A DNA stretch of 64,000 bases from Desulfuromonadales bacterium (lineage in GTDB: Bacteria; Desulfobacterota; Desulfuromonadia; Geobacterales; Pseudopelobacteraceae): the NCBI GenBank assembly GCA_013349325.1, contig DUZX01000006.1:1-64000 (forward strand), given 5' to 3'. The translations under genes and the position numbers were made by a program. Shown piece after piece: positions 32,957 through 61,306 of this stretch (position 1 is the first letter of the stretch; every line of letters begins with the position of its first letter). Under the pieces are notes generated by a model. It ran no database searches. It had not been told where the DNA came from and was given only the letters and a program-made list of their open reading frames with translations.

Positions 32957-34642
32957 ATTAAAGAAGTCTTCGGCAATCTTTCAGGCTTAAAATCCAGCCA
33001 GATTCAATCATTGGAACGCTTATACCGCAGACGGGTGCCGGTCGCCGAGTTCTGCTCGCATGAGCTGGCATCCCGCCTGGTAGAAATATCGGGCGATCTG
33101 CGGCGCCAGGTCGGTATCCTCATCAATCGCTCCGGCAGCGTCGAGTACGTTATCGTCGGTGATGAAAAAGGGCTGGTGATACCGGAATTGCGAGATTATC
33201 CGCTCGGCAAGCGGGTTATGCGCGGCCTGCGCTTGATCCATACCCATCTGAAAAATGAACCGGTTTCTGAAGACGATCTGACTGACCTGGCTCTCTTGCG
33301 GCTGGACCTGCTGGCGGCTCTCATGACGGCTCCCGGCAAAGATCAGATCTCTGCTCAGCTGGCCTGGCTGGCGCCTGATCAACGCGGAGCCGGAACGACG
33401 CTCGATCCGGTAGTTACCTTGGATCGTATAGACCTGGACTGCGTTCACGCCATCCCCGAGCTGGAAGCCGATCTTGAAAAAGCGGCGCGCGCAGCCACCA
33501 ACGCCGGGACCTCTCTCGAACGTGCCATTATGATTTCGGTGACAACCTCCGGCACCCGCCAGGAAGCGGAAGATTCCATGGCGGAGTTGCGTGAGCTGGC
33601 TCGTACCGCCCAGGTGGAAGCACTGGATGAGTTCATTCAGCGTCCGAAAGGACTCAATCCCCGTTTTCTGATGGGTGAAGGGATGATGCGTGATGTCGTC
33701 ATCCGGGCCATGCAGCGCGGGGCCAGCATGCTGATCTTTGATCAGGAGCTGACTCCGGCTCAGATGCGCTCCATCTCGGCCATGACCGAGCTGAAAGTCA
33801 TTGACCGGAGCCAGCTGATTCTGGATATTTTTGCCCGTCGTGCAAAAACGCTGGATGGCAAGGTGCAGGTCGAGCTGGCGCAATTGAAATACCTGCTGCC
33901 GCGTCTGACCGGTCGCGGTGTACAGATGTCGCGTCTGATGGGGGGCATCGGTGGGCGTGGGCCGGGGGAAACCAAGCTGGAGACCGATCGCCGCCGTATC
34001 CGTGACCGGATTGCCAGTCTGGAGCGGGAGCTGAAGGAGCTTTCACAGGGGCGCGATCAGCGCCGTAAACAGCGCGTCAAGGCGGGGGTGCCGATTATTT
34101 CGATCGTTGGCTACACCAATGCCGGCAAATCGACCCTGCTGAACGCCCTGACGCAGAGCGACGTCTTTACCGAAGATCTGCTCTTTGCGACACTGGATAC
34201 CTCGACCCGGCGTCTGCGCTTTCCGCGTGAGCGTGAGGTGATCATCACCGACACGGTCGGTTTCATCCGCTCGCTGCCGAAATCGCTTTTGGGGGCTTTC
34301 AAGGCGACGCTTGAAGAGATGCGTGATGCCGATCTGCTGCTGCATGTCGTAGACGCGTCGCATCCCCGTTTTGAGGATCAGATCGCCCAGGTACGGACGA
34401 TTCTGGCAGAGTTGGAACTGGGGGATAAGCAGGAGCTGCTGGTCTACAACAAGTCCGATCTGCTGTATGAGATGAAAAAGAAGGATACGGTAGCATTTTT
34501 GAAAGTTCGTCAGTCTGCCAGGACCCAGCACAGCGTCACGGTCTCCGCCCGCGATCGCAAAAGCCTCAAACCGTTGATGGACCAGCTACAGAGAAAGTTC
34601 TGGCCGGAAGAGGACGATGGTGCGTTTACGGCATCCCCCTGA
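32957..34642 (+). CDS. hflX: GTPase HflX, probable AUU start
   Basis: 561 aa if started at ATT 32957. HflX is a ribosome-associated GTPase that rescues or splits stalled ribosomes. N-terminal subdomain, then the glycine-rich linker GGIGGRGPGETKLETDRR, then the G domain: GYTNAGKSTLLNAL (G1), DTVGFI (G3), NKSD (G4). No ATG or GTG precedes the conserved LYRRRVP region; a TTG lies at 33011. The frame upstream, IKEVFGNLSGLKSSQIQS, matches the usual HflX N-terminus, and ATT at 32957 has GGAG 7 nt upstream, 14 nt after the fabI stop. The 3' end overlaps the convergent kinase gene by 17 bp. Confidence 0.9.
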   Translation: MKEVFGNLSGLKSSQIQSLERLYRRRVPVAEFCSHELASRLVEISGDLRRQVGILINRSGSVEYVIVGDEKGLVIPELRDYPLGKRVMRGLRLIHTHLKNEPVSEDDLTDLALLRLDLLAALMTAPGKDQISAQLAWLAPDQRGAGTTLDPVVTLDRIDLDCVHAIPELEADLEKAARAATNAGTSLERAIMISVTTSGTRQEAEDSMAELRELARTAQVEALDEFIQRPKGLNPRFLMGEGMMRDVVIRAMQRGASMLIFDQELTPAQMRSISAMTELKVIDRSQLILDIFARRAKTLDGKVQVELAQLKYLLPRLTGRGVQMSRLMGGIGGRGPGETKLETDRRRIRDRIASLERELKELSQGRDQRRKQRVKAGVPIISIVGYTNAGKSTLLNALTQSDVFTEDLLFATLDTSTRRLRFPREREVIITDTVGFIRSLPKSLLGAFKATLEEMRDADLLLHVVDASHPRFEDQIAQVRTILAELELGDKQELLVYNKSDLLYEMKKKDTVAFLKVRQSARTQHSVTVSARDRKSLKPLMDQLQRKFWPEEDDGAFTASP

Positions 34643-37235
34643 TTACCTCCCGTAACGCCGAAAGAGTATAGGGCTTCTGGACGAAACCGGCCAAGCCCTT
34701 GCCAATGAACTTCCCGCTGACCTCCTGCTCGCTGTACCCGCTGCTCATGATTACCTTAACGTCAGGTTTATGCTGGCGCATCTCCCGGTAACACTGCTCG
34801 CCATCCATCTTCGGCATAGTCAGATCCATAATCACAAAACTGATATCAGTCCGCTGTTTGAACAGTTCCAGCGCTTCCCTGCCGTCACCGGCGGTAAGCG
34901 TCGTAAAACCCAACTCCTTCAGCATTTCCGTGCCGATTCCACGAACAGTCTCCTCATCATCAACCAGCAGAACGAGTCCGCTCCCTTTCCAGGTATCGCT
35001 GACAGTATGGCCGTTGAAAACTTCGGCAGGTTTTTCGCTGGCCGGCAGCAGGATCTTGAAGGATGTGCCTTTGCCGACTTCACTATAGACCTTGATAGCG
35101 CCATGATGACCACGCACGATCCCCAGTACGGCGGACATTCCAAGCCCGCGGCCGGTAAATTTTGTCGTGAAGAACGGGTCGAACAGTCTTGAGAGGGTCT
35201 CCTTCTCCATGCCGCAGCCGGTATCGGCAATTTCCAGATAGACATACAGACCATCGGTGAGATTCTCGTCCAGCCAGACATCTTTCAGGTAATTCCGGTC
35301 ACAATCCATGCAACCGGTGGTGATGGCGATAATGCCGCTCCTGTCACCGACCGCTTCGGAAGAATTGATGACCAGATTCATGATGATCTGGCGAATCTGG
35401 GTGGCATCGGCTTTTACGGTCGGCAAACGTTCGTTAAGGTTGAAACGCAGGACCGCTTTTTTGGAAATAGAAACTTCCAGCAGGTGCAGCATCTCTTCCA
35501 GCAGCCGGTTCAGATTGATTTCCTCGACGATAAATTTGCCTTTCCCGGAGTAGGCCAGCATCTGTTTGGCCAGATCAGCAGCCCGGGCCGCAGAGGTCTC
35601 GATTCGGTGCAGATTTTCAATAACCGGTGATTCAGGATTCAGCCGCATCAGCGCCAGTTCGGCGTTGCCGAGGATTGCCATCAGAATATTATTGAAGTCA
35701 TGTGCAATTCCGCCGGCCAGAACGCCAAGGCTCTCCAGTTTTTGTGCCTGCTGTACCTGAAGCTCTATTTTATTGCGATTTTCCTCGGCAGTAATGCGCT
35801 CGGTAATGTCGGCGATATGCCCAAACAGAAAGAGCAGGTTTCCCGCAGCGTCTTCCTGGCGACAGGCGCAGAAATGTCCCCAAAAGTCGCTCTGGTCATA
35901 GCGGATAAAATGTTTATCGATACCGACCAGTTCAACCTCTTTGGAAAGGAGCTTCTGTAGACGTTCAGAGGCAGATGTTCGCTGTGTGGGGTGAATATGT
36001 TTCGGGTAGCTGGAGCCGATCAGGTCGCCCATACTACAGCCAAACATTTCAGCCATGCGGCGATTGGCAAAGCGGATGATACCCTCGGCATCAATCAGAA
36101 TTATACCGGTGGGGGAGGTCTCGAAGAGGGTACGAAAGCGGTCCTCACTCAACTTTTTATCAGCTTCAGCTTTTTCCCGTTCGGCCATTTCGGCGCGCAG
36201 GCGCTGGTTGAGACGACGGAAACTCACAACTATCATGGTGAGAACGGTGATAATAATGGTTGCCAGGATGGTAATGGCAATTGCCATGCGATGGTCGCGG
36301 ATCAGCACGGGGTTGTAGATAATTCCCTGCGGGTCGAATCCTTTAGGCAGCATCCCTTGCGCAACAAAGGTCTCCGCTATCTTTTCCCAGCGTGACGGGT
36401 TTTGATATCCCAATTCAACCAATGCAGGCTGGATCAGCGTTTCGATCTGATTGGCCTCGAACAGCAGCCACTCACGACTTTTACTGCGCGAGTATTTTGA
36501 GAGAATAAGGTCAGCAATTTCGCCGCGATTATCGAGTGCATAGCGCCACCCCTTGAGTGTCGCTTCCCGAAATGCCTTGACCAGTTCCGGTTTATCCTCT
36601 ATCAGGCGTTTTGTTGTGAAAAAATTGTCGCCGTAAAAATCGATTCCGGAGGAGAGCGGAGAAAATGTCAGATACGGTTCGCCGACCTCCTCCAGCAAAA
36701 ACGGTTCATTAAAGACGTAGGCCATCATCACGTCGGCCTTGCCGTTGATCAGGTCACGTGGATCACCCTGGTGATTCACTTTGATAAACCGGCTTTCATC
36801 GATCCCATTTAATTTCAGCAAGGCCAGCGTATCGGCGGACTGCCGGGTATACATGAAACGATGGCCGACCATCTGGGAAACCGAATGAATGCCTGTTTTG
36901 TGTGTGGTCAAAAGGATAGCCGCAGAGTGCTGGAAAATCTGTCCTACAACAACCAGATCCGCTCCCTTGGCGCGATGCAGCAGCAGCGAAGATGTCCCGA
37001 CACCGAAGTCAGTCTCTCCGGAGAGAACGCCCGCCTCCACGTTTGTGGCGGGTCCTCCTTCACGGATAGTGACATCCAGTCCGGCCTGTGTGTAAAAGCC
37101 CTTCTCAAGGGCGGCGTAATATCCTGCAAATTGGAAATGATGCAGCCATTTGAGCTGCAGAGTGACTTTTTCAAGGGCTTGGGCAGGAGAGGCTGACAGA
37201 AACAGGATCAGGAGTAACAGGGAAATGTATCGCAT
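34626..37235 (-). CDS. Hybrid sensor histidine kinase with THI5/NMT1-type periplasmic domain
   Basis: 869 aa. After a signal peptide (MRYISLLLLILFLSASPAQA) comes a THI5/NMT1 substrate-binding domain (LKWLHHFQFAGYYAALEKGFYTQAG), a family that in transporters binds pyrimidine or sulfonate ligands. A transmembrane helix follows (ITILATIIITVLTMIVV, about 318-336), then a PAS domain (about 365-485), HisKA with phosphoacceptor HDFNN (about 512), HATPase with GCGMEKE and GRGLGMS, and a receiver domain with the phosphorylation Asp in VIMDLTMPKMDG. All catalytic residues are present. It lies downstream of the haem-c GGDEF-EAL gene on the same strand (56 nt gap). Confidence 0.93.
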   Translation of the reverse strand: MRYISLLLLILFLSASPAQALEKVTLQLKWLHHFQFAGYYAALEKGFYTQAGLDVTIREGGPATNVEAGVLSGETDFGVGTSSLLLHRAKGADLVVVGQIFQHSAAILLTTHKTGIHSVSQMVGHRFMYTRQSADTLALLKLNGIDESRFIKVNHQGDPRDLINGKADVMMAYVFNEPFLLEEVGEPYLTFSPLSSGIDFYGDNFFTTKRLIEDKPELVKAFREATLKGWRYALDNRGEIADLILSKYSRSKSREWLLFEANQIETLIQPALVELGYQNPSRWEKIAETFVAQGMLPKGFDPQGIIYNPVLIRDHRMAIAITILATIIITVLTMIVVSFRRLNQRLRAEMAEREKAEADKKLSEDRFRTLFETSPTGIILIDAEGIIRFANRRMAEMFGCSMGDLIGSSYPKHIHPTQRTSASERLQKLLSKEVELVGIDKHFIRYDQSDFWGHFCACRQEDAAGNLLFLFGHIADITERITAEENRNKIELQVQQAQKLESLGVLAGGIAHDFNNILMAILGNAELALMRLNPESPVIENLHRIETSAARAADLAKQMLAYSGKGKFIVEEINLNRLLEEMLHLLEVSISKKAVLRFNLNERLPTVKADATQIRQIIMNLVINSSEAVGDRSGIIAITTGCMDCDRNYLKDVWLDENLTDGLYVYLEIADTGCGMEKETLSRLFDPFFTTKFTGRGLGMSAVLGIVRGHHGAIKVYSEVGKGTSFKILLPASEKPAEVFNGHTVSDTWKGSGLVLLVDDEETVRGIGTEMLKELGFTTLTAGDGREALELFKQRTDISFVIMDLTMPKMDGEQCYREMRQHKPDVKVIMSSGYSEQEVSGKFIGKGLAGFVQKPYTLSALREVIRGMP

Positions 37236-54539: not shown

Positions 54540-54614
54540 AAATGGATACTTCCGTTGACATCCGTTTTGTAAGACGCTATACCACATAGCAATTTTATGT
54601 TCTGGAGGTTAAGA

Positions 54615-55793
54615 ATGAAGTTTGCAGCCGTTGTCACGCTGGTAGTGACGCTCTTCGCCGGTGCTGCCGGCGCCGAAAATGTTTCCAAACCGATTCCGAT
54701 CGGCATCGCTGTCGCTCAAACCAGCAATGTGGCACTGTTCGGTCAGGAGCAGATGAACGGCGCCAAAGTTGCGGAGAAGTATTTCAATATAAGCGGTATC
54801 AATGGAACGCCGATTAAGCTGATCAGCCAGGATACCGGGGGCGACGAAGCCGGAGCTATCAACGCTTTTCAGAATCTGGTAAGCAAGGAAAAGGTAGTTG
54901 GTATTGTCGGTCCGACGCTCTCGCAACAGGCGTTTGCTGCCGATCCGGTCGCCAACCGGCTGAAGGTGCCGGTAATCGCCCCTTCCAATACAGCCAAGGG
55001 AATCCCGCAGATCGGCGAGTTTGTCGGGCGCGTTTCAGCGCCGGTTGCCAAGGTTGCCCCCTTTGCAGTCACGCAGGCGCTTAAACTGAACCCGGCCATC
55101 AAGCGCGTAGCGATTCTGTATGCCCAAAATGACGCCTTCTGCTCATCTGAAACGACTATTTTTCAGCAGGCGGTCAAGCGTCAGAAGCTTGAGATTGCCA
55201 CGCTGCAGAAATTCATGACTACGGATACCGATTTTACCACGCAGGCCACGGCTGTCCTGCGAGCCAAGGCCGATCTGGTGATCATTTCCGGTTTGGCGGC
55301 TGATGGCGGTAACCTGGTCAAACAGCTGCGCCAGCTTGGCTACAAAGGGACTATTATCGGTGGTAACGGTTTTAATACCACCAATGTCTTCCCGGTCTGC
55401 GGCAAGAACTGTGAAGGTATCCTGGTCGCCCAGGCCTACAGCCCTTTGGCGCAGAACCCGCTTAACAAAGCCTTTGTTGATGAATACCGGCGCACATTCA
55501 TAAAAGATCCACCCCAGTTTGCCGCACAGTCGTTCACTGCAATTCAGCTTATTGTCGAGGGACTGCGCAAGGTGGAGATCGCCACCAAGAAAAAGATCAC
55601 GCAGCTGGATCTGGCAACTGTCCGGGTTGAACTCAACAAGGCTCTGCGCAAGGGATCGTATATGACGCCGCTGGGGGAGATCTCGCTTGATGCGGAAGGC
55701 GATATCAATCAACACTCGTTCTATGTATCCAAGATTAAAATGGATATCAGCGGTAAGGTTGGAGTATTTGCAATCGTTTCCGTCGTAAAATAG
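54615..55793 (+). CDS. livK: Branched-chain amino-acid ABC transporter, substrate-binding protein
   Basis: 392 aa. Signal peptide MKFAAVVTLVVTLFAGAAGA, then a type I periplasmic binding fold of the LivJ/LivK kind (IPIGIAVAQTSNVALFGQEQMNGAKVA, IVGPTLSQQAFAADPVANRLKVPVIAP, LKLNPAIKRVAILYAQNDAFCSSE). It binds leucine, isoleucine, valine or a related ligand. The ATG at 54615 follows GGAGG; the longer frame from 54597 is rejected. First gene of the liv operon. Confidence 0.92.
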   Translation: MKFAAVVTLVVTLFAGAAGAENVSKPIPIGIAVAQTSNVALFGQEQMNGAKVAEKYFNISGINGTPIKLISQDTGGDEAGAINAFQNLVSKEKVVGIVGPTLSQQAFAADPVANRLKVPVIAPSNTAKGIPQIGEFVGRVSAPVAKVAPFAVTQALKLNPAIKRVAILYAQNDAFCSSETTIFQQAVKRQKLEIATLQKFMTTDTDFTTQATAVLRAKADLVIISGLAADGGNLVKQLRQLGYKGTIIGGNGFNTTNVFPVCGKNCEGILVAQAYSPLAQNPLNKAFVDEYRRTFIKDPPQFAAQSFTAIQLIVEGLRKVEIATKKKITQLDLATVRVELNKALRKGSYMTPLGEISLDAEGDINQHSFYVSKIKMDISGKVGVFAIVSVVK

Positions 55794-55800
55794 CTCGTTA

Positions 55801-56751
55801 ATGTACACAGGTGAATACCTCCAGAATATCCTCAACGGCATCAGTATCGGCAGCGTGTACGCCATCTTCGCCCTCGGCTACACGCTGGTCTTTTCAATTC
55901 TTGGCATCATCAATTTTGCTCACGGCGCCGTTTTTACGCTGGGCGCCTACCTGACCTACAGTCTGGCGGTCGGCCACTTCGGTATCGGCGGCCTGCTGGC
56001 AGACATGCAGGTTCCGTTTCGACTCTCTTTTCCCCTCTCACTGCTGCTGGGTTCACTACTTTCGGGGGTATTCGGCGTGCTGATCGAACGTTGCGCGTTT
56101 CGCCCCCTGCGTTTGCGGGGCGCCGACCCGCTGCTGGCGCTGGTCAGCAGTCTCGGTGTGGCGCTGGTGACGATCAATGTCATCCAATACCTGGTCGGAT
56201 CCGAAATATATTCCTTTCCGTCAGAAGTATACGGAGATATCCGGCCGGCATTTACGTTTCAACGTGGCGATACAACGATCGTGCTGCGCACGGTGCAGCT
56301 GATCATCTTTGCTGTCAATATGACGGTTCTCGTGCTGCTGAGGTATCTGATCAGCTGCACGCGGGTCGGCAAGGCGCTGCGTGCGGTCGCCGAAAACTCT
56401 TCTACCGCGAGTCTGCTCGGGATCAATGTCGATCGCTTCATTCTCTATACCTTTTTTCTTTCCGGTTTTCTCGGCGGTATGGCTGGTGGGCTGGTCGGCA
56501 CCAGCTTCGGAATTGCAGGGCCATACTTCGGCGTCTCCTACGGACTGAAGGGGCTGGCGGTTATCGTGCTGGGCGGTTTGGGCAGTATTCCGGGGGCAGT
56601 GCTGGGTGGCATGGTAATCGGTCTGGCTGAGGCGTTTGTCCCGTCGGACTACAGCGCCTACAAGGAAGCGGTCGCCTTTGCCTATCTGTTTACCATGCTG
56701 CTGATCTGTCCGCGTGGTCTGCTTGGCCGTGCGACCATCGAGAAGGTGTAG
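55801..56751 (+). CDS. livH: Branched-chain amino-acid ABC transporter, permease LivH
   Basis: 316 aa, about eight membrane helices. Family signature LNGISIGSVYAIFALGYTLVFSILGIINFAHGAVF at the N-terminus and GLKGLAVIVLGGLGSIPGAVLGGMVIGLAEAF near the C-terminus. Begins 7 nt after livK. Forms the membrane pore with LivM. Confidence 0.94.
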   Translation: MYTGEYLQNILNGISIGSVYAIFALGYTLVFSILGIINFAHGAVFTLGAYLTYSLAVGHFGIGGLLADMQVPFRLSFPLSLLLGSLLSGVFGVLIERCAFRPLRLRGADPLLALVSSLGVALVTINVIQYLVGSEIYSFPSEVYGDIRPAFTFQRGDTTIVLRTVQLIIFAVNMTVLVLLRYLISCTRVGKALRAVAENSSTASLLGINVDRFILYTFFLSGFLGGMAGGLVGTSFGIAGPYFGVSYGLKGLAVIVLGGLGSIPGAVLGGMVIGLAEAFVPSDYSAYKEAVAFAYLFTMLLICPRGLLGRATIEKV

Positions 56752-56754
56752 GCC

Positions 56755-57666
56755 ATGGAAGGGTTCCTTCAAAATTATGGTTTTCTGCTGGTCACGCTGC
56801 TGCAGCAGTCGCTCCTGGCCTTTAGTCTCTATTTCCCGCTGATGGCGGGACAGCTGAGTCTGGCCAGTCCCGGCTTTTATGCGTTGGGGGGCTACATTGC
56901 CGCCATTATGTCTACGGCTCCAGAATGTACTCCGCTGCGTGAAAAGCTCGGCACCGGCATCTATCCGTTGGAGTGGCTGGCGGCCGGCCTGATCAGTGGC
57001 GTCCTGGCCCTTGTGATCGGCATTTCGGCGCTGCGTCTGCGCGGTATCTATCTGGCGCTGGCCACGATCGCCTTTGTGGAGATCCTGCGGGTTATCTGTC
57101 TGAATCTTGAGATTACCGGTGGAGCGATCGGCATCTTCGATATCCCGCAGCTGTTTGCAGAGCGCTGGTCGTATGGCCTGATCTTCGGACCGCTGCTGCT
57201 GTTGACGCTTCTGTTTGTCTACCGGCTTGAAAATTCCCGCACCGGCAGAGCCTTGAAAGCCATTCGTGAGGATGAACTGGCAGCCGGGGCCATGGGGATC
57301 CATACGACCTACTACAAGGTGCTGGCGTTTGTGATCGGCGCGGTGTTGGCCGGGATCGTCGGGGCCATGAGTGCCCCTTTTCTGAATACCTGGAACGCCC
57401 GCCAGGGAACCTTTGACGCATCGATATCCTACCTGGCCTATGTTCTGATCGGCGGCAGTCGCTCAATGTGGGGGCCGCTGCTGGGTGCTGTGCTTCTGGC
57501 CTCGCTTCCGGAGCTGCTCAGGCCGCTCAAGGATGCCCGTCTGATCATCAACGGCATGGTGCTGGTCGTTGCCAGTATCTATCTCCCGCAGGGGATTGTC
57601 GGTGCTCTGGGACGCCTCAAGCGCTGTGTCGTCAAGAATACCTCGCCGATGGGAGGTGAACGGTGA
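56755..57666 (+). CDS. livM: Branched-chain amino-acid ABC transporter, permease LivM
   Basis: 303 aa, about eight membrane helices. LivM-type motifs: FSLYFPLMAGQLSLASPGFYALGGYIAAIM, LRLRGIYLALATIAFVEILRVICLNLEITGGAIGI, RTGRALKAIREDELAAGAMGI. Follows livH after 3 nt and overlaps the livG start by 4 nt. Confidence 0.94.
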   Translation: MEGFLQNYGFLLVTLLQQSLLAFSLYFPLMAGQLSLASPGFYALGGYIAAIMSTAPECTPLREKLGTGIYPLEWLAAGLISGVLALVIGISALRLRGIYLALATIAFVEILRVICLNLEITGGAIGIFDIPQLFAERWSYGLIFGPLLLLTLLFVYRLENSRTGRALKAIREDELAAGAMGIHTTYYKVLAFVIGAVLAGIVGAMSAPFLNTWNARQGTFDASISYLAYVLIGGSRSMWGPLLGAVLLASLPELLRPLKDARLIINGMVLVVASIYLPQGIVGALGRLKRCVVKNTSPMGGER

Positions 57667-58427
57667 GCGTCATCATACAGGCGGATGGTCTCTGCCGTAA
57701 TTTTGGCGGGTTGCAGGCCGTTGATTCCGTTTCGTTCAGCGTTAACGAAGGGGAGATTTTCGGACTGATTGGCCCTAACGGTGCCGGCAAGACCACGCTT
57801 TTCAATCTGATTACCGGTCTGACGCCGGTCAGCAGCGGTAGTTTCAGCTATCAGGGGCGCGCGATTACCGGCCTGCCGCCGCATCGTATCGCCGGTCAGG
57901 GCATTGCCAGAACCTTTCAGAACATCCGTTTGTTCAAGGGGTTGAGCGTTCTTGAAAATGTGAGAATTTCGCAGCACGCCTGCACACGAACGGGACTTTT
58001 CAGTGGGATCCTGGGGCTGCCAGCCAGCCGTCGTGAAGAGCGGGAAGTGGAAGAGAAGGCGTGGGAAATTTTGAAGCTGATCGGGCTGTCGGGACGTGCT
58101 GCGGAGCTGGCCGGCAATCTGGCATACGGTGATCAGCGTCGTCTGGAGATCGGCCGTGCGCTGGCGCTGCAGCCGAAAGTGCTGCTGCTTGACGAACCGG
58201 CCGCCGGCATGAATGCTGCCGAAAAGCAGAGCCTGACCGGCTTTATCCGTGAAGTACGCGAGCTGTTTCATGTAACGATGCTGCTGATCGAGCATCACGT
58301 CCCGCTCGTCATGGGGCTGTGCGACAGAATTCTGGTACTGCATTTCGGCAGTATGATCGCCCTGGGCGATCCTGCAGCCGTGCAGCAGGATCAGGCTGTT
58401 ATCGAAGCCTACCTGGGGGCTGAATAG
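57663..58427 (+). CDS. livG: Branched-chain amino-acid ABC transporter, ATPase LivG
   Basis: 254 aa. Walker A GPNGAGKTT, Q-loop, the signature region LAYGDQRRLEIGRAL (Tyr-Gly-Asp-Gln in place of LSGGQ, typical of LivG), Walker B VLLLDEPAAGMN and the H-loop IEHH. GTG start in the GTGA overlap with livM. Confidence 0.95.
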   Translation: MSVIIQADGLCRNFGGLQAVDSVSFSVNEGEIFGLIGPNGAGKTTLFNLITGLTPVSSGSFSYQGRAITGLPPHRIAGQGIARTFQNIRLFKGLSVLENVRISQHACTRTGLFSGILGLPASRREEREVEEKAWEILKLIGLSGRAAELAGNLAYGDQRRLEIGRALALQPKVLLLDEPAAGMNAAEKQSLTGFIREVRELFHVTMLLIEHHVPLVMGLCDRILVLHFGSMIALGDPAAVQQDQAVIEAYLGAE

Positions 58428-58428
58428 C

Positions 58429-59139
58429 ATGGCGCTGCTGGAGCTTGAAAATGTTTCGGTCGCCTACGGAGCCATCCAGGCGGTTCGCAATCTCAATCTT
58501 GAAGTGCATGAGGGGGAAATTGTCACCTTGATCGGGGCCAATGGCGCCGGCAAGAGCAGCACTCTTCGGGCAATTTCGCGGCTGTTGAAACTACAGGCCG
58601 GGCGGATCCGTTTTGATGGCCGGGATATCAGCGACTCTGCATCGCACGCTGTCGTCCGCGCCGGTATAGCCCAGAGCCCGGAGGGACGGCAGGTGCTGAC
58701 GAAGCAGAGTGTGCAGGACAATCTGGAACTGGGTGCCTACGTGCGCCACGACCGTGCCGCTATCAAAGATGATATCGAGCGCATGTACCGGCTCTTTCCG
58801 CGTCTGGGGGAGCGTAAACAGCAGTCAGCCGGGACACTATCGGGGGGTGAACAGCAGATGCTGGCGATTGCCCGCGCCCTGATGAGTCGTCCACGCCTTT
58901 TGCTGCTTGACGAACCGAGTCTGGGGCTGGCGCCGCTGATCGTGCTGGAGATTTTTTCGATTATCCGTGAGCTTAACAGCGAAGGAACGACCATTCTTTT
59001 GGTTGAGCAGAATGCCAAGCTGGCGATGCAGCATGCACAGCGCACCTATGTCCTTGAAGCCGGACAAATCACCTTCTCCGGTCTTTCCCGCGAACTGCTC
59101 ACCGATGAACGGGTGCTGCACGCCTATCTGGGCGGCTAG
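58429..59139 (+). CDS. livF: Branched-chain amino-acid ABC transporter, ATPase LivF
   Basis: 236 aa. Walker A GANGAGKSS, signature LSGGEQQMLAIARALM, Walker B LLLLDEPSLGLAP and H-loop VEQN, the LivF pattern. Starts 1 nt after livG. Last gene of the operon; no terminator is obvious directly after it. Between 59140 and 59296 no gene is seen, only a weak stem near 59220-59254. Confidence 0.95.
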   Translation: MALLELENVSVAYGAIQAVRNLNLEVHEGEIVTLIGANGAGKSSTLRAISRLLKLQAGRIRFDGRDISDSASHAVVRAGIAQSPEGRQVLTKQSVQDNLELGAYVRHDRAAIKDDIERMYRLFPRLGERKQQSAGTLSGGEQQMLAIARALMSRPRLLLLDEPSLGLAPLIVLEIFSIIRELNSEGTTILLVEQNAKLAMQHAQRTYVLEAGQITFSGLSRELLTDERVLHAYLGG

Positions 59140-59296
59140 TTACAACGCCCACCTCCGATTCCTGCCATTACTCCACTTGCTTCACCGTTACGGACGGTAC
59201 ATCCGCCCCTTCGGTAGTATGAAAAAAGCAAGGCGGCTGAGTGGACGCTTTTTGAATACGTATGATGTCACCGGAAACTCAGAAACGTGCAGTTCA

Positions 59297-59535
59297 TTAC
59301 GGCAAAACGGACAATCCAAGCTCCTTGAGAAAGGCATTGTGCTTTTCCTTGGCCGTCTCGATGCTCTGCGTCAATGAAAGCAACTTCTCATTGACCGCCT
59401 GCAAATCGATTTCTTCCTCCGTCTGAGCGGTGCTGATGTAGCGCGAGATGTTCAGTTTGTAGCCTTCCTTCTCGATTCGCTCCATCGATATGCGAAAGAG
59501 AGCGGGATCTTGATTCAGAGAAATTTCTGTAAACG
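59297..59535 (-). pseudogene. C-terminal remnant of a type I restriction methylase subunit (HsdM)
   Basis: The frame is open from about 59535 (just after a TAA) to the stop at 59297. The sequence ALFRISMERIEKEGYKLNISRYISTAQTEEEIDL and AKEKHNAFLKELGLSVLP matches the C-terminus of HsdM proteins (YNLNISRYV...EEEIDL...HNXFLKELGL). The first in-frame ATG is at 59485. The methylase core is absent, and the adjacent bases are a terminator and a riboswitch, so this is a relic. Confidence 0.75.
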
Positions 59536-59541
59536 ATTAAT

Positions 59542-59573
59542 AAAAAAGGGCCAGATTACTAATCTGGCCCTTT
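59542..59573 (-). terminator. Intrinsic terminator behind the TPP riboswitch
   Basis: AAAGGGCCAGATT (59545-59557) and AATCTGGCCCTTT (59561-59573) form a perfect 13-bp stem with loop ACT. On the minus strand it is followed by T6 (59547-59542). It sits about 35 nt after the riboswitch aptamer, the usual place for an expression platform. Confidence 0.9.
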
Positions 59574-59602
59574 CGATTTATGGTTGCTGATAGCAAAAAC
59601 AA

Positions 59603-59712
59603 ACCTCCGGCATTACCCGGATCAGGTACGAAGGGTCGTGGTCCAGGCCACTCTCAGTCGAAACTCTCCCAGCATCGAGCCAATCTTAGATGATTGGTGC
59701 CCCACTGTTAAT
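59603..59712 (-). promoter_or_regulatory. TPP riboswitch (THI element), orphan
   Basis: Read on the minus strand, the sequence contains GGGGCACC, then CTGAGAG, then ACCCTTCGTACCTGATC, then CGGGTAATGCCGGAGG. These are the conserved blocks GGGGxGCC, CUGAGA, ACCCUUxxxACCUGAUC and GGxUAAUxCC of the thiamine-pyrophosphate aptamer, in the right order and spacing. A perfect terminator follows on the same strand. No thiamine gene or transporter lies behind it; only the HsdM relic and then livF in the opposite direction. Confidence 0.82.
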
Positions 59713-59853
59713 CCAATTTTCGGTTCTCTCACGTCTGCCACCTTCTCGTGGAATTATTTTTATTTCAAGATTTGTGCATGTTGATATTGACGCGTTTTTC
59801 TGGCATTGTACGCCATCCTGTGGACAAACTGCAGGTGGGGTGCGGAGGCGGTA

Positions 59854-60222
59854 ATGGCTGATAAACGGGACATCAGGCGGCAGAAAAAACGGATCTCAAT
59901 CCGCTTTGGTATTGATGAGGCCATCAGAATGGCCTTTACGGAAGATATTTCTGCAACCGGCATGTTTATCAAGTCCGCGAACATCATTGCTCCTAACACA
60001 AAGATACGTATTGAATTCATGTTGGCCGACGATTGTAAGGTAGAGCTGGAGGCACGCGTTATGTGGGCTAAAAAAGTGCCCCAGAACCTGTTCCATCTGG
60101 TAAAAAAAAGCGGTATGGGGGTTCACTTTCTCCGTTTTTTCTCCGGACGTGAGCATCTCGATGCCTATTTGTCAGAAATCGGCGCGACCCAAACAGTTTT
60201 AGAGGAGGATGGCCATGTGTAA
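59854..60222 (+). CDS. PilZ-domain protein
   Basis: 122 aa. PilZ domains bind cyclic di-GMP. The N-terminal RRQKKR provides the RxxxR motif and DISATGMF the D/NxSxxG motif; the remaining beta-barrel follows (RIEFMLADDCKVELEARVMWAKKV). The start at 59854 follows GGAGGCG; the longer frame from 59806 is not needed. Its end overlaps the next gene by 8 nt, so the two are coupled. Confidence 0.9.
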   Translation: MADKRDIRRQKKRISIRFGIDEAIRMAFTEDISATGMFIKSANIIAPNTKIRIEFMLADDCKVELEARVMWAKKVPQNLFHLVKKSGMGVHFLRFFSGREHLDAYLSEIGATQTVLEEDGHV

Positions 60223-61306
60223 AAAAGTCTTCATCGGTGCGACGGGGCAGCATTGCGGCAAGACGACCATCAGTCTGTCACTGATGCATCTGGCCAAAAA
60301 AAAATACGAGCGGGTCGGCTTCATGAAACCGATCGGTCCCAAATGGATAGAATTTAACGGCCTTTATGTGGATAAAGATGCGGCCATGTTTGCTTCCGTT
60401 TTCGGCATGGAGCAGGATGTGGCGTTGATGTCTCCGATGACGCTTACCCCCGGTACGACGCGCCGCTTCCTTGATGGCGAGATTTCTTCTTCCATGCCAC
60501 GGGAGTCAATCATGTCTGCCTGCGCGGAGTTGGAAAAAAAATATGATTTTCTGATTATTGAAGGGGCTGGTCACGGTGGTGTCGGCTCTGTGGTCGGAAT
60601 GAATAATGCCCGGATTGCGTCGCTTTTGGGAGCACCAGTCCTGCTGGTAACCGGTGGCGGAATCGGAAATGTTATTGACGCCGTCGAGTTGAATATTGCT
60701 CTGTACCAGCGCGAACAGGCAGATGTCCGTTTTGTGATTGCCAACAAACTGGATAAGGAAAAACGGGACAAATCCCTCGGTTACCTCCAAAAAGCTTTTG
60801 CCGACAGTGGCATGCAGGTCTTGGGAGCTTTTGACTATCTACCGGTACTGGCAGATCCGACGCTGTTGCATGTCTCGAAACTGATCGGATTGCCGCTCAA
60901 AGGTGAAGAGGGGGACCAGAATCGTATCTGCCATACCATTCAACTGGGGGCCGCCTCGTCTCAAAGAGTAATTGACCATCTCGAAGATTCCACTTTGCTG
61001 ATCGTAACCAGCTCCCGGGACGAATTGCTGGTTACGGCCTCTTCACTTCACCATATGCCGGAATTCAGAAAACTACTGGCCGGTTTGATAATCGCCGGGC
61101 ACGTTCCGGTGGCTGACATAACGCAGCGCATCATTGATGACAGCAATATCCCGTATATCCGCATCGAAGAGACGTCTTCCGAAATTTTTTATCAACTGCG
61201 TGAACACGTTTCGAAGATCGGACCGGAAGATACCGAAAAAATCGAGCTGATAAACTCGATTACAGAGCGCTATATTGACTTTGATGCGATTGATGCAAGT
61301 TTGTAG
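60215..61306 (+). CDS. P-loop protein with BioD-like and DRTGG domains
   Basis: 363 aa. N-terminal AAA_26/BioD-like domain with Walker A GATGQHCGKTTIS and DFLIIEGAGHGGVGSVVGMNN. The C-terminal part (VTSSRDELLVTASSLHHMPEF...LIIAGHVPVADITQRIIDDSNIPYI) fits a DRTGG domain, as in the N-terminal part of some phosphotransacetylases. Possible role as a sensor of nucleotide or acyl-phosphate; not established. Start ATG 60215 is 6 nt after GAGGAGG; ATG 60209 is too close to that site. Confidence 0.85.
   Translation: MCKKVFIGATGQHCGKTTISLSLMHLAKKKYERVGFMKPIGPKWIEFNGLYVDKDAAMFASVFGMEQDVALMSPMTLTPGTTRRFLDGEISSSMPRESIMSACAELEKKYDFLIIEGAGHGGVGSVVGMNNARIASLLGAPVLLVTGGGIGNVIDAVELNIALYQREQADVRFVIANKLDKEKRDKSLGYLQKAFADSGMQVLGAFDYLPVLADPTLLHVSKLIGLPLKGEEGDQNRICHTIQLGAASSQRVIDHLEDSTLLIVTSSRDELLVTASSLHHMPEFRKLLAGLIIAGHVPVADITQRIIDDSNIPYIRIEETSSEIFYQLREHVSKIGPEDTEKIELINSITERYIDFDAIDASL

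What the first reader, a model, noticed from the sequence alone, without database searches (positions are those of the whole stretch)
59297..59712. Orphan TPP riboswitch with a terminator and no thiamine gene
The minus-strand aptamer has all the conserved THI-element blocks in order (CTGAGAG, ACCTGATC, GGTAATGCC) and is followed by a perfect 13-bp terminator with T6. Downstream are only an HsdM relic and the convergent liv operon. Either a thiamine gene was lost by the event that left the HsdM relic, or the short TPP-dependent transcript now acts on its own as a small RNA. The window also holds a THI5/NMT1-domain kinase (34626-37235), a family that includes pyrimidine binders, but a link between the two is speculative.
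Basis: partly seen in the sequence, partly recalled or inferred. Interest (0 to 1): 0.8.

Follow-up and report, generated by a model that had tools for sequence, protein, structure and literature searches.

The report
Vitamin B1 RNA switch broken in two
The lone vitamin-B1-sensing RNA element is the front part of an ordinary thiamine riboswitch that a genome rearrangement cut in two; the back part still sits in front of the thiamine genes on another contig, so this is a decaying relic and probably not a new kind of RNA.

Summary
The sequence features are real: TPP-aptamer blocks on the minus strand, a strong terminator, an HsdM relic and the liv operon. But the element is not a complete riboswitch. 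It scores 26.3 bits against Rfam's cut-off of 54.3, and stops at window 59607, losing J5/4 (C77, G78) and the 3' strands of P4 and P1.

37 of the 38 other genomes held for the genus carry a homologous element. In 19 of 20 relatives fetched at 15-20 kb the order is (motB-motA-)DRTGG gene-(PilZ)-[intact TPP switch]-thiS-thiG-thiE. Here that block is broken inside the aptamer. The window keeps the promoter and 5' part. Contig C18 of the same genome carries the missing 3' part, its terminator and intact thiS-thiG-thiE.

Joined in silico, the parts align end to end with relatives' switches, with 5 changes at 66 core positions invariant in 30 relatives (relatives, scored likewise: 0 or 1 each). The genome's other TPP switch (thiED-thiC) is intact.

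So no thiamine gene was lost, and nothing supports a working orphan sensor or small RNA; predicted trans pairing between the parts is no better than shuffled. Best reading: a TPP riboswitch bisected by rearrangement and now decaying. Interest is modest.

The parts
59683..59711 (-). Ancestral promoter of the thi leader: -35 TTAACA (59711-59706; TTGACA in the 30 relatives aligned), 17-nt spacer, -10 TAAGAT (59688-59683)
   Evidence: Promoter scan; alignment with 30 relatives
59607..59673 (-). 5' part of the TPP aptamer: P1 5' strand, P2, J3/2 (TGAGA), P3, P4 5' strand (ACCTGATC), P5 (CCGG-GTAATG-CCGG); stops at the break
   Evidence: Rfam 26.3 bits; homology to 37 genus-mates ends at 59607 or 59608; alignment
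59607..59611 (-). GCCGG, the 5 bases present at both broken ends (also C18 at L057 14160-14164): target-site duplication or microhomology
   Evidence: Sequence of both junctions
59544..59574 (-). Intrinsic terminator unrelated to the ancestral thi leader terminator; now ends any transcript from the old promoter
   Evidence: Scan: 14 pairs, loop 3, then T run; not found after the aptamer in relatives
59300..59500 (-). HsdM relic: last 67 codons of a type I restriction-modification methylase gene
   Evidence: 82% identity to the C-terminus of the 535-aa HsdM in L085; DNA 89%
59806..60222 (+). PilZ-domain gene, ancestral upstream neighbour of the riboswitch (start codon uncertain)
   Evidence: Pfam PilZ; same place in most relatives
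60209..61306 (+). AAA_26-DRTGG-domain gene, ancestral upstream neighbour of the riboswitch
   Evidence: Pfam; next to the thi riboswitch in 19 of 20 relatives fetched
54597..59139 (+). livK-livH-livM-livG-livF operon, convergent; not a neighbour of the thi riboswitch in relatives
   Evidence: Synteny

Best explanation
The element is the promoter and 5' part of the TPP riboswitch that precedes thiS-thiG-thiE throughout this genus (Geobacteraceae-related). A chromosomal rearrangement in this lineage broke the aptamer at the end of P5 (GCCGG). The 5' part stayed beside motB-motA-DRTGG-PilZ and now abuts island debris (new terminator, HsdM tail) and the liv operon. The 3' part (J5/4, P4 and P1 3' strands, leader terminator) is with thiS-thiG-thiE on contig C18, beside a hydrolase-GH3 gene pair. 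Shown: both parts, the order in relatives, intact copies in relatives, and changes at invariant positions in both parts. Inferred: the window part may still make an RNA of about 130 nt that cannot sense TPP; thiSGE has lost TPP control and uses another promoter, while thiED-thiC keeps an intact TPP switch. The cause of the break (an inserted element with 5-bp target duplication, or microhomology at GCCGG) is open.
For: Rfam 26.3 bits versus 54.3. Homologues in 37 of 38 genus-mates, none with this junction; their elements score 63-75 bits. Order in relatives. ThiG on C18 with GCCGGCATAGGGAAGTGCGC and a terminator before thiS; this stretch matches relatives' 3' parts down to E=2e-11. Joined parts align end to end with 30 relatives; 5 changes at 66 invariant core positions versus 0 or 1 per relative. 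Within-genome control: thiED-thiC TPP switch at 61 bits without core change.
Against: The ancestral partner locus was not found: liv operon and hydrolase-GH3 pair are not adjacent in relatives, so the rearrangement had more than one step or unseen partners. About 220 bases on C18 and most of 470 in the window have no clear source. One relative (L043) also has its thi switch away from the DRTGG gene, with the switch intact. No expression data.
Confidence: 0.92

Rival explanations
1. A working TPP-responsive small RNA: aptamer plus terminator are made as a short transcript that acts in trans.
For: A promoter-like site and a strong terminator frame the element; P3 pairing is kept by a compensatory change.
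Against: J5/4, P4 and P1 3' strands are missing; the P3 change may predate the break; the -35 box is weakened; no relative has a stand-alone copy; interaction with the C18 thiS leader -6.7 kcal/mol, reached by 103 of 150 shuffles. Other targets were not searched.
Confidence: 0.03
2. Antisense-acting riboswitch on the convergent liv operon, of the kind listed in PMC9943018.
For: It lies antisense beyond the 3' end of livF, the geometry described in that paper.
Against: The terminator at 59544 ends the transcript about 400 bases before livF; the aptamer is incomplete; liv operons of relatives have no TPP element found beside them. That paper itself reads cases beside transposases and pseudogenes as fortuitous.
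Confidence: 0.01
3. Assembly fault: two contigs falsely joined, with an intact riboswitch in the real genome.
For: The genome is a 72-contig draft and no reads are available.
Against: Both junctions lie inside contigs of 120 and 74 kb; the shared sequence is only GCCGG; the flanks are not repeated in the genome apart from the terminator palindrome; both parts carry changes at otherwise invariant sites, including G78 to A.
Confidence: 0.04

Closest known systems
TPP riboswitch (RF00059) before thiS-thiG-thiE in the genus-mates (e.g. L004, L005, L007)
   Same: Same promoter, same 5' aptamer part, same upstream neighbours
   Different: Theirs are complete (63-75 bits) and run into thiS; this one is cut after P5 and runs into a foreign terminator
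TPP riboswitch before thiED-thiC on contig C23 of the same genome
   Same: Same RNA family, same genome
   Different: Intact, 61 bits, no change in the aptamer core
Riboswitches parted from their genes by transposon insertion or lying beside pseudogenes (PMC9943018)
   Same: A riboswitch left beside an unrelated gene in one lineage while relatives keep the normal arrangement
   Different: Here the break lies inside the aptamer, and both parts are identified in one genome
Stand-alone or trans-acting riboswitch RNAs (from memory, e.g. the cobalamin riboswitch antisense to pocR in Listeria; named in PMC9943018)
   Same: Aptamer transcript without an adjacent cognate gene on its strand
   Different: Those have complete aptamers and an identified target; this one has neither

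Membership tests
TPP riboswitch (RF00059) | Covariance score at or above the gathering score (54.3 bits) | tested here: not met
   26.3 bits; no match at gathering threshold
TPP riboswitch (RF00059) | J3/2 T-loop UGAGA (pyrimidine pocket), P4/P5 block ACCUGAUC...GGUAAU | tested here: met
   Sequence and alignment; residues 39-43 per PMC3764141
TPP riboswitch (RF00059) | J5/4 C77-G78 (pyrophosphate contact) and P4 3' strand | tested here: not met
   Deleted from the window copy; C18 part has CA in place of CG (PMC7824784, PMC3764141)
TPP riboswitch (RF00059) | P1 closing helix | tested here: not met
   3' strand lost at the break; the strand Rfam aligned is promoter sequence
TPP riboswitch (RF00059) | Thiamine gene in the same transcript | tested here: not met
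   Only HsdM relic and convergent liv genes follow; the thi genes are on C18
TPP riboswitch (RF00059) | Binds TPP | not testable with these tools
   Needs in-line probing or ITC
Broken (relic) TPP riboswitch | Orthologous by position to an intact switch in relatives, missing essential parts, with changes at conserved sites | tested here: met
Trans-acting small RNA | Base-pairing to a target better than chance | tested here: inconclusive
   Not better than shuffled for the thiS leader; no other target tested

The most novel reading that the evidence does not exclude
Both parts are transcribed and the window RNA joins the thiS leader in trans, a riboswitch working as two separate RNAs; or the short window RNA has gained a new small-RNA role. 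Not formally excluded, but the changes at conserved sites, the loss of G78 in both parts and the lack of predicted trans pairing speak against it.
Probability: 0.02. Interest if true: 0.9.

Novelty: new member of a known kind. Interest (0 to 1): 0.33.

Why it matters
It explains an apparently orphan riboswitch without a new RNA function, and it is a clean natural experiment: in one lineage the thiazole operon (thiSGE) seems to have been freed from its TPP switch by a break inside the aptamer, while the thiED-thiC operon keeps its switch and the relatives keep both. It also warns that motif reading by eye, or below-threshold covariance hits, can report parts of broken switches as orphan riboswitches.

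Tried and rejected
Rfam at gathering score gave only a tRNA in the window. Weak Rfam hits to MicC, Termite-leu and DapZ overlap the terminator and are far below their cut-offs. A one-step reciprocal inversion: the liv operon and the hydrolase-GH3 pair are not adjacent in relatives, so it was not shown. Insertion-sequence ends at the junctions: none recognised by eye, and neither flank is repeated elsewhere in the genome. Trans pairing between the two parts. Literature searches found no report of this case; the term 'thiS' was swamped by the word 'this'.

Full report
What is there. The minus strand of 59711-59544 carries a promoter-like site, the first part of a TPP aptamer and a strong terminator. 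The covariance score is 26.3 bits against a cut-off of 54.3, and the window gives no TPP match at the gathering threshold. The alignment shows why: after P5 the consensus GCGUAGGGA block is missing, and the 5' strand used for P1 is really the promoter, as the relatives show.

The same element in relatives. A DNA search found the homologous stretch in 37 of the 38 other genomes held for the genus; every match ends at query base 133 or 134, that is window 59608 or 59607. In relatives the sequence goes on GCCGGCGTAGGGAAGCGCG, a terminator, and thiS. Their elements score about 63-75 bits. In 20 of 20 relatives fetched the thi side is thiS-thiG-thiE-radical SAM gene; in 19 of the 20 the other side has the DRTGG gene, usually with PilZ and motA-motB. 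The exception is L043. The window has exactly this upstream side (motB-motA-DRTGG-PilZ).

Where the rest went. ThiG occurs once in this genome, on contig C18. In front of C18 thiS lies GCCGGCATAGGGAAGTGCGC...AAGCCGATTTTGCGGCTTTTT, the missing 3' part of the aptamer and the leader terminator. Pfam confirms ThiS, ThiG and ThiE. This stretch matches the relatives' 3' parts with E down to 2e-11. Past GCCGG on C18 come about 220 bases with no relative found, then sequence homologous to the upstream region of a hydrolase-GH3 gene pair that lies elsewhere in relatives. Past GCCGG in the window come a new terminator, the last 67 codons of an HsdM gene and the liv operon, whose own upstream neighbours are conserved in several relatives. 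So one ancestral locus is now two, and the cut lies inside the aptamer.

Decay. Joining the parts in silico gives a sequence that aligns end to end with 30 relatives. At 66 core positions invariant in those relatives it has 5 changes; a relative scored the same way against the others has 0 or 1. Two of the five are a compensatory P3 pair and may predate the break. The others, in my mapping to E. coli thiM numbering, are G18 to A, G78 to A and one change near the P1 3' strand. Outside the core the -35 box changed from TTGACA to TTAACA. As a control, the genome's other TPP switch, before thiED-thiC, scores 61 bits and has no change in the aptamer core. C77 and G78 contact the pyrophosphate of TPP or its metal ions (PMC7824784, PMC3764141). 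The window part lacks both and the C18 part has lost G78.

Meaning. The window RNA, if made, should not sense TPP, and thiSGE should no longer obey TPP; a weak promoter-like site lies in the new bases on C18 (L057 14280-14252, minus strand). Both points are inference. Pairing between the window RNA and the C18 leader is predicted no better than with shuffled RNA. Five bases, GCCGG, stand at both broken ends, which fits a 5-bp target duplication by a lost element or a microhomology event; I cannot decide between them. An assembly fault is unlikely, because nothing longer than these five bases is shared and both parts carry changes at invariant sites.

Comparison with the known. PMC9943018 describes riboswitches parted from their genes by transposons, or lying beside pseudogenes, and reads them as fortuitous. 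The present case is of that kind, with the break inside the aptamer and both pieces in hand. The closest named records found are uncultured Geobacteraceae and Geobacter MAGs.

Noticed in passing
window 34626-37235 (-): 869-aa hybrid sensor kinase with an N-terminal NMT1/THI5-like domain, PAS, HisKA, HATPase_c and receiver domains.
   Followed up: partly
window 59213-59276: Stretch between the HsdM relic and livF with about 80% DNA identity to short places in G052 (L089) and G028 (L090), further foreign debris of unknown nature.
   Followed up: partly
L057 14166-14386 (C18): About 220 bases between the 3' part of the riboswitch and the hydrolase gene with no homologue in 58 genomes; contains a weak promoter-like site facing thiS.
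   Followed up: partly
G023 (genus-mate genome): The one genus-mate with neither ThiG nor the thiSGE TPP element detected, at 96% completeness: real loss or an assembly gap.
   Followed up: no
G000:C23:19313-20578 and G000:C10:79220-80476 (L098, L099): Two ThiC genes in this genome, only the first lying downstream of a TPP riboswitch that was found.
   Followed up: no
L019, L032, L106, just after the leader terminator: A similar short sequence (TTTAGTAAGYTAGAA...TTCTGCG...) follows TPP leader terminators in three genus-mates, perhaps a small mobile palindromic repeat.
   Followed up: no
L043 (G025): The thi riboswitch and thiS-thiG-thiE are intact but not beside the DRTGG gene, so the locus has been rearranged at least once more in the genus, with a different breakpoint.
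   Followed up: no
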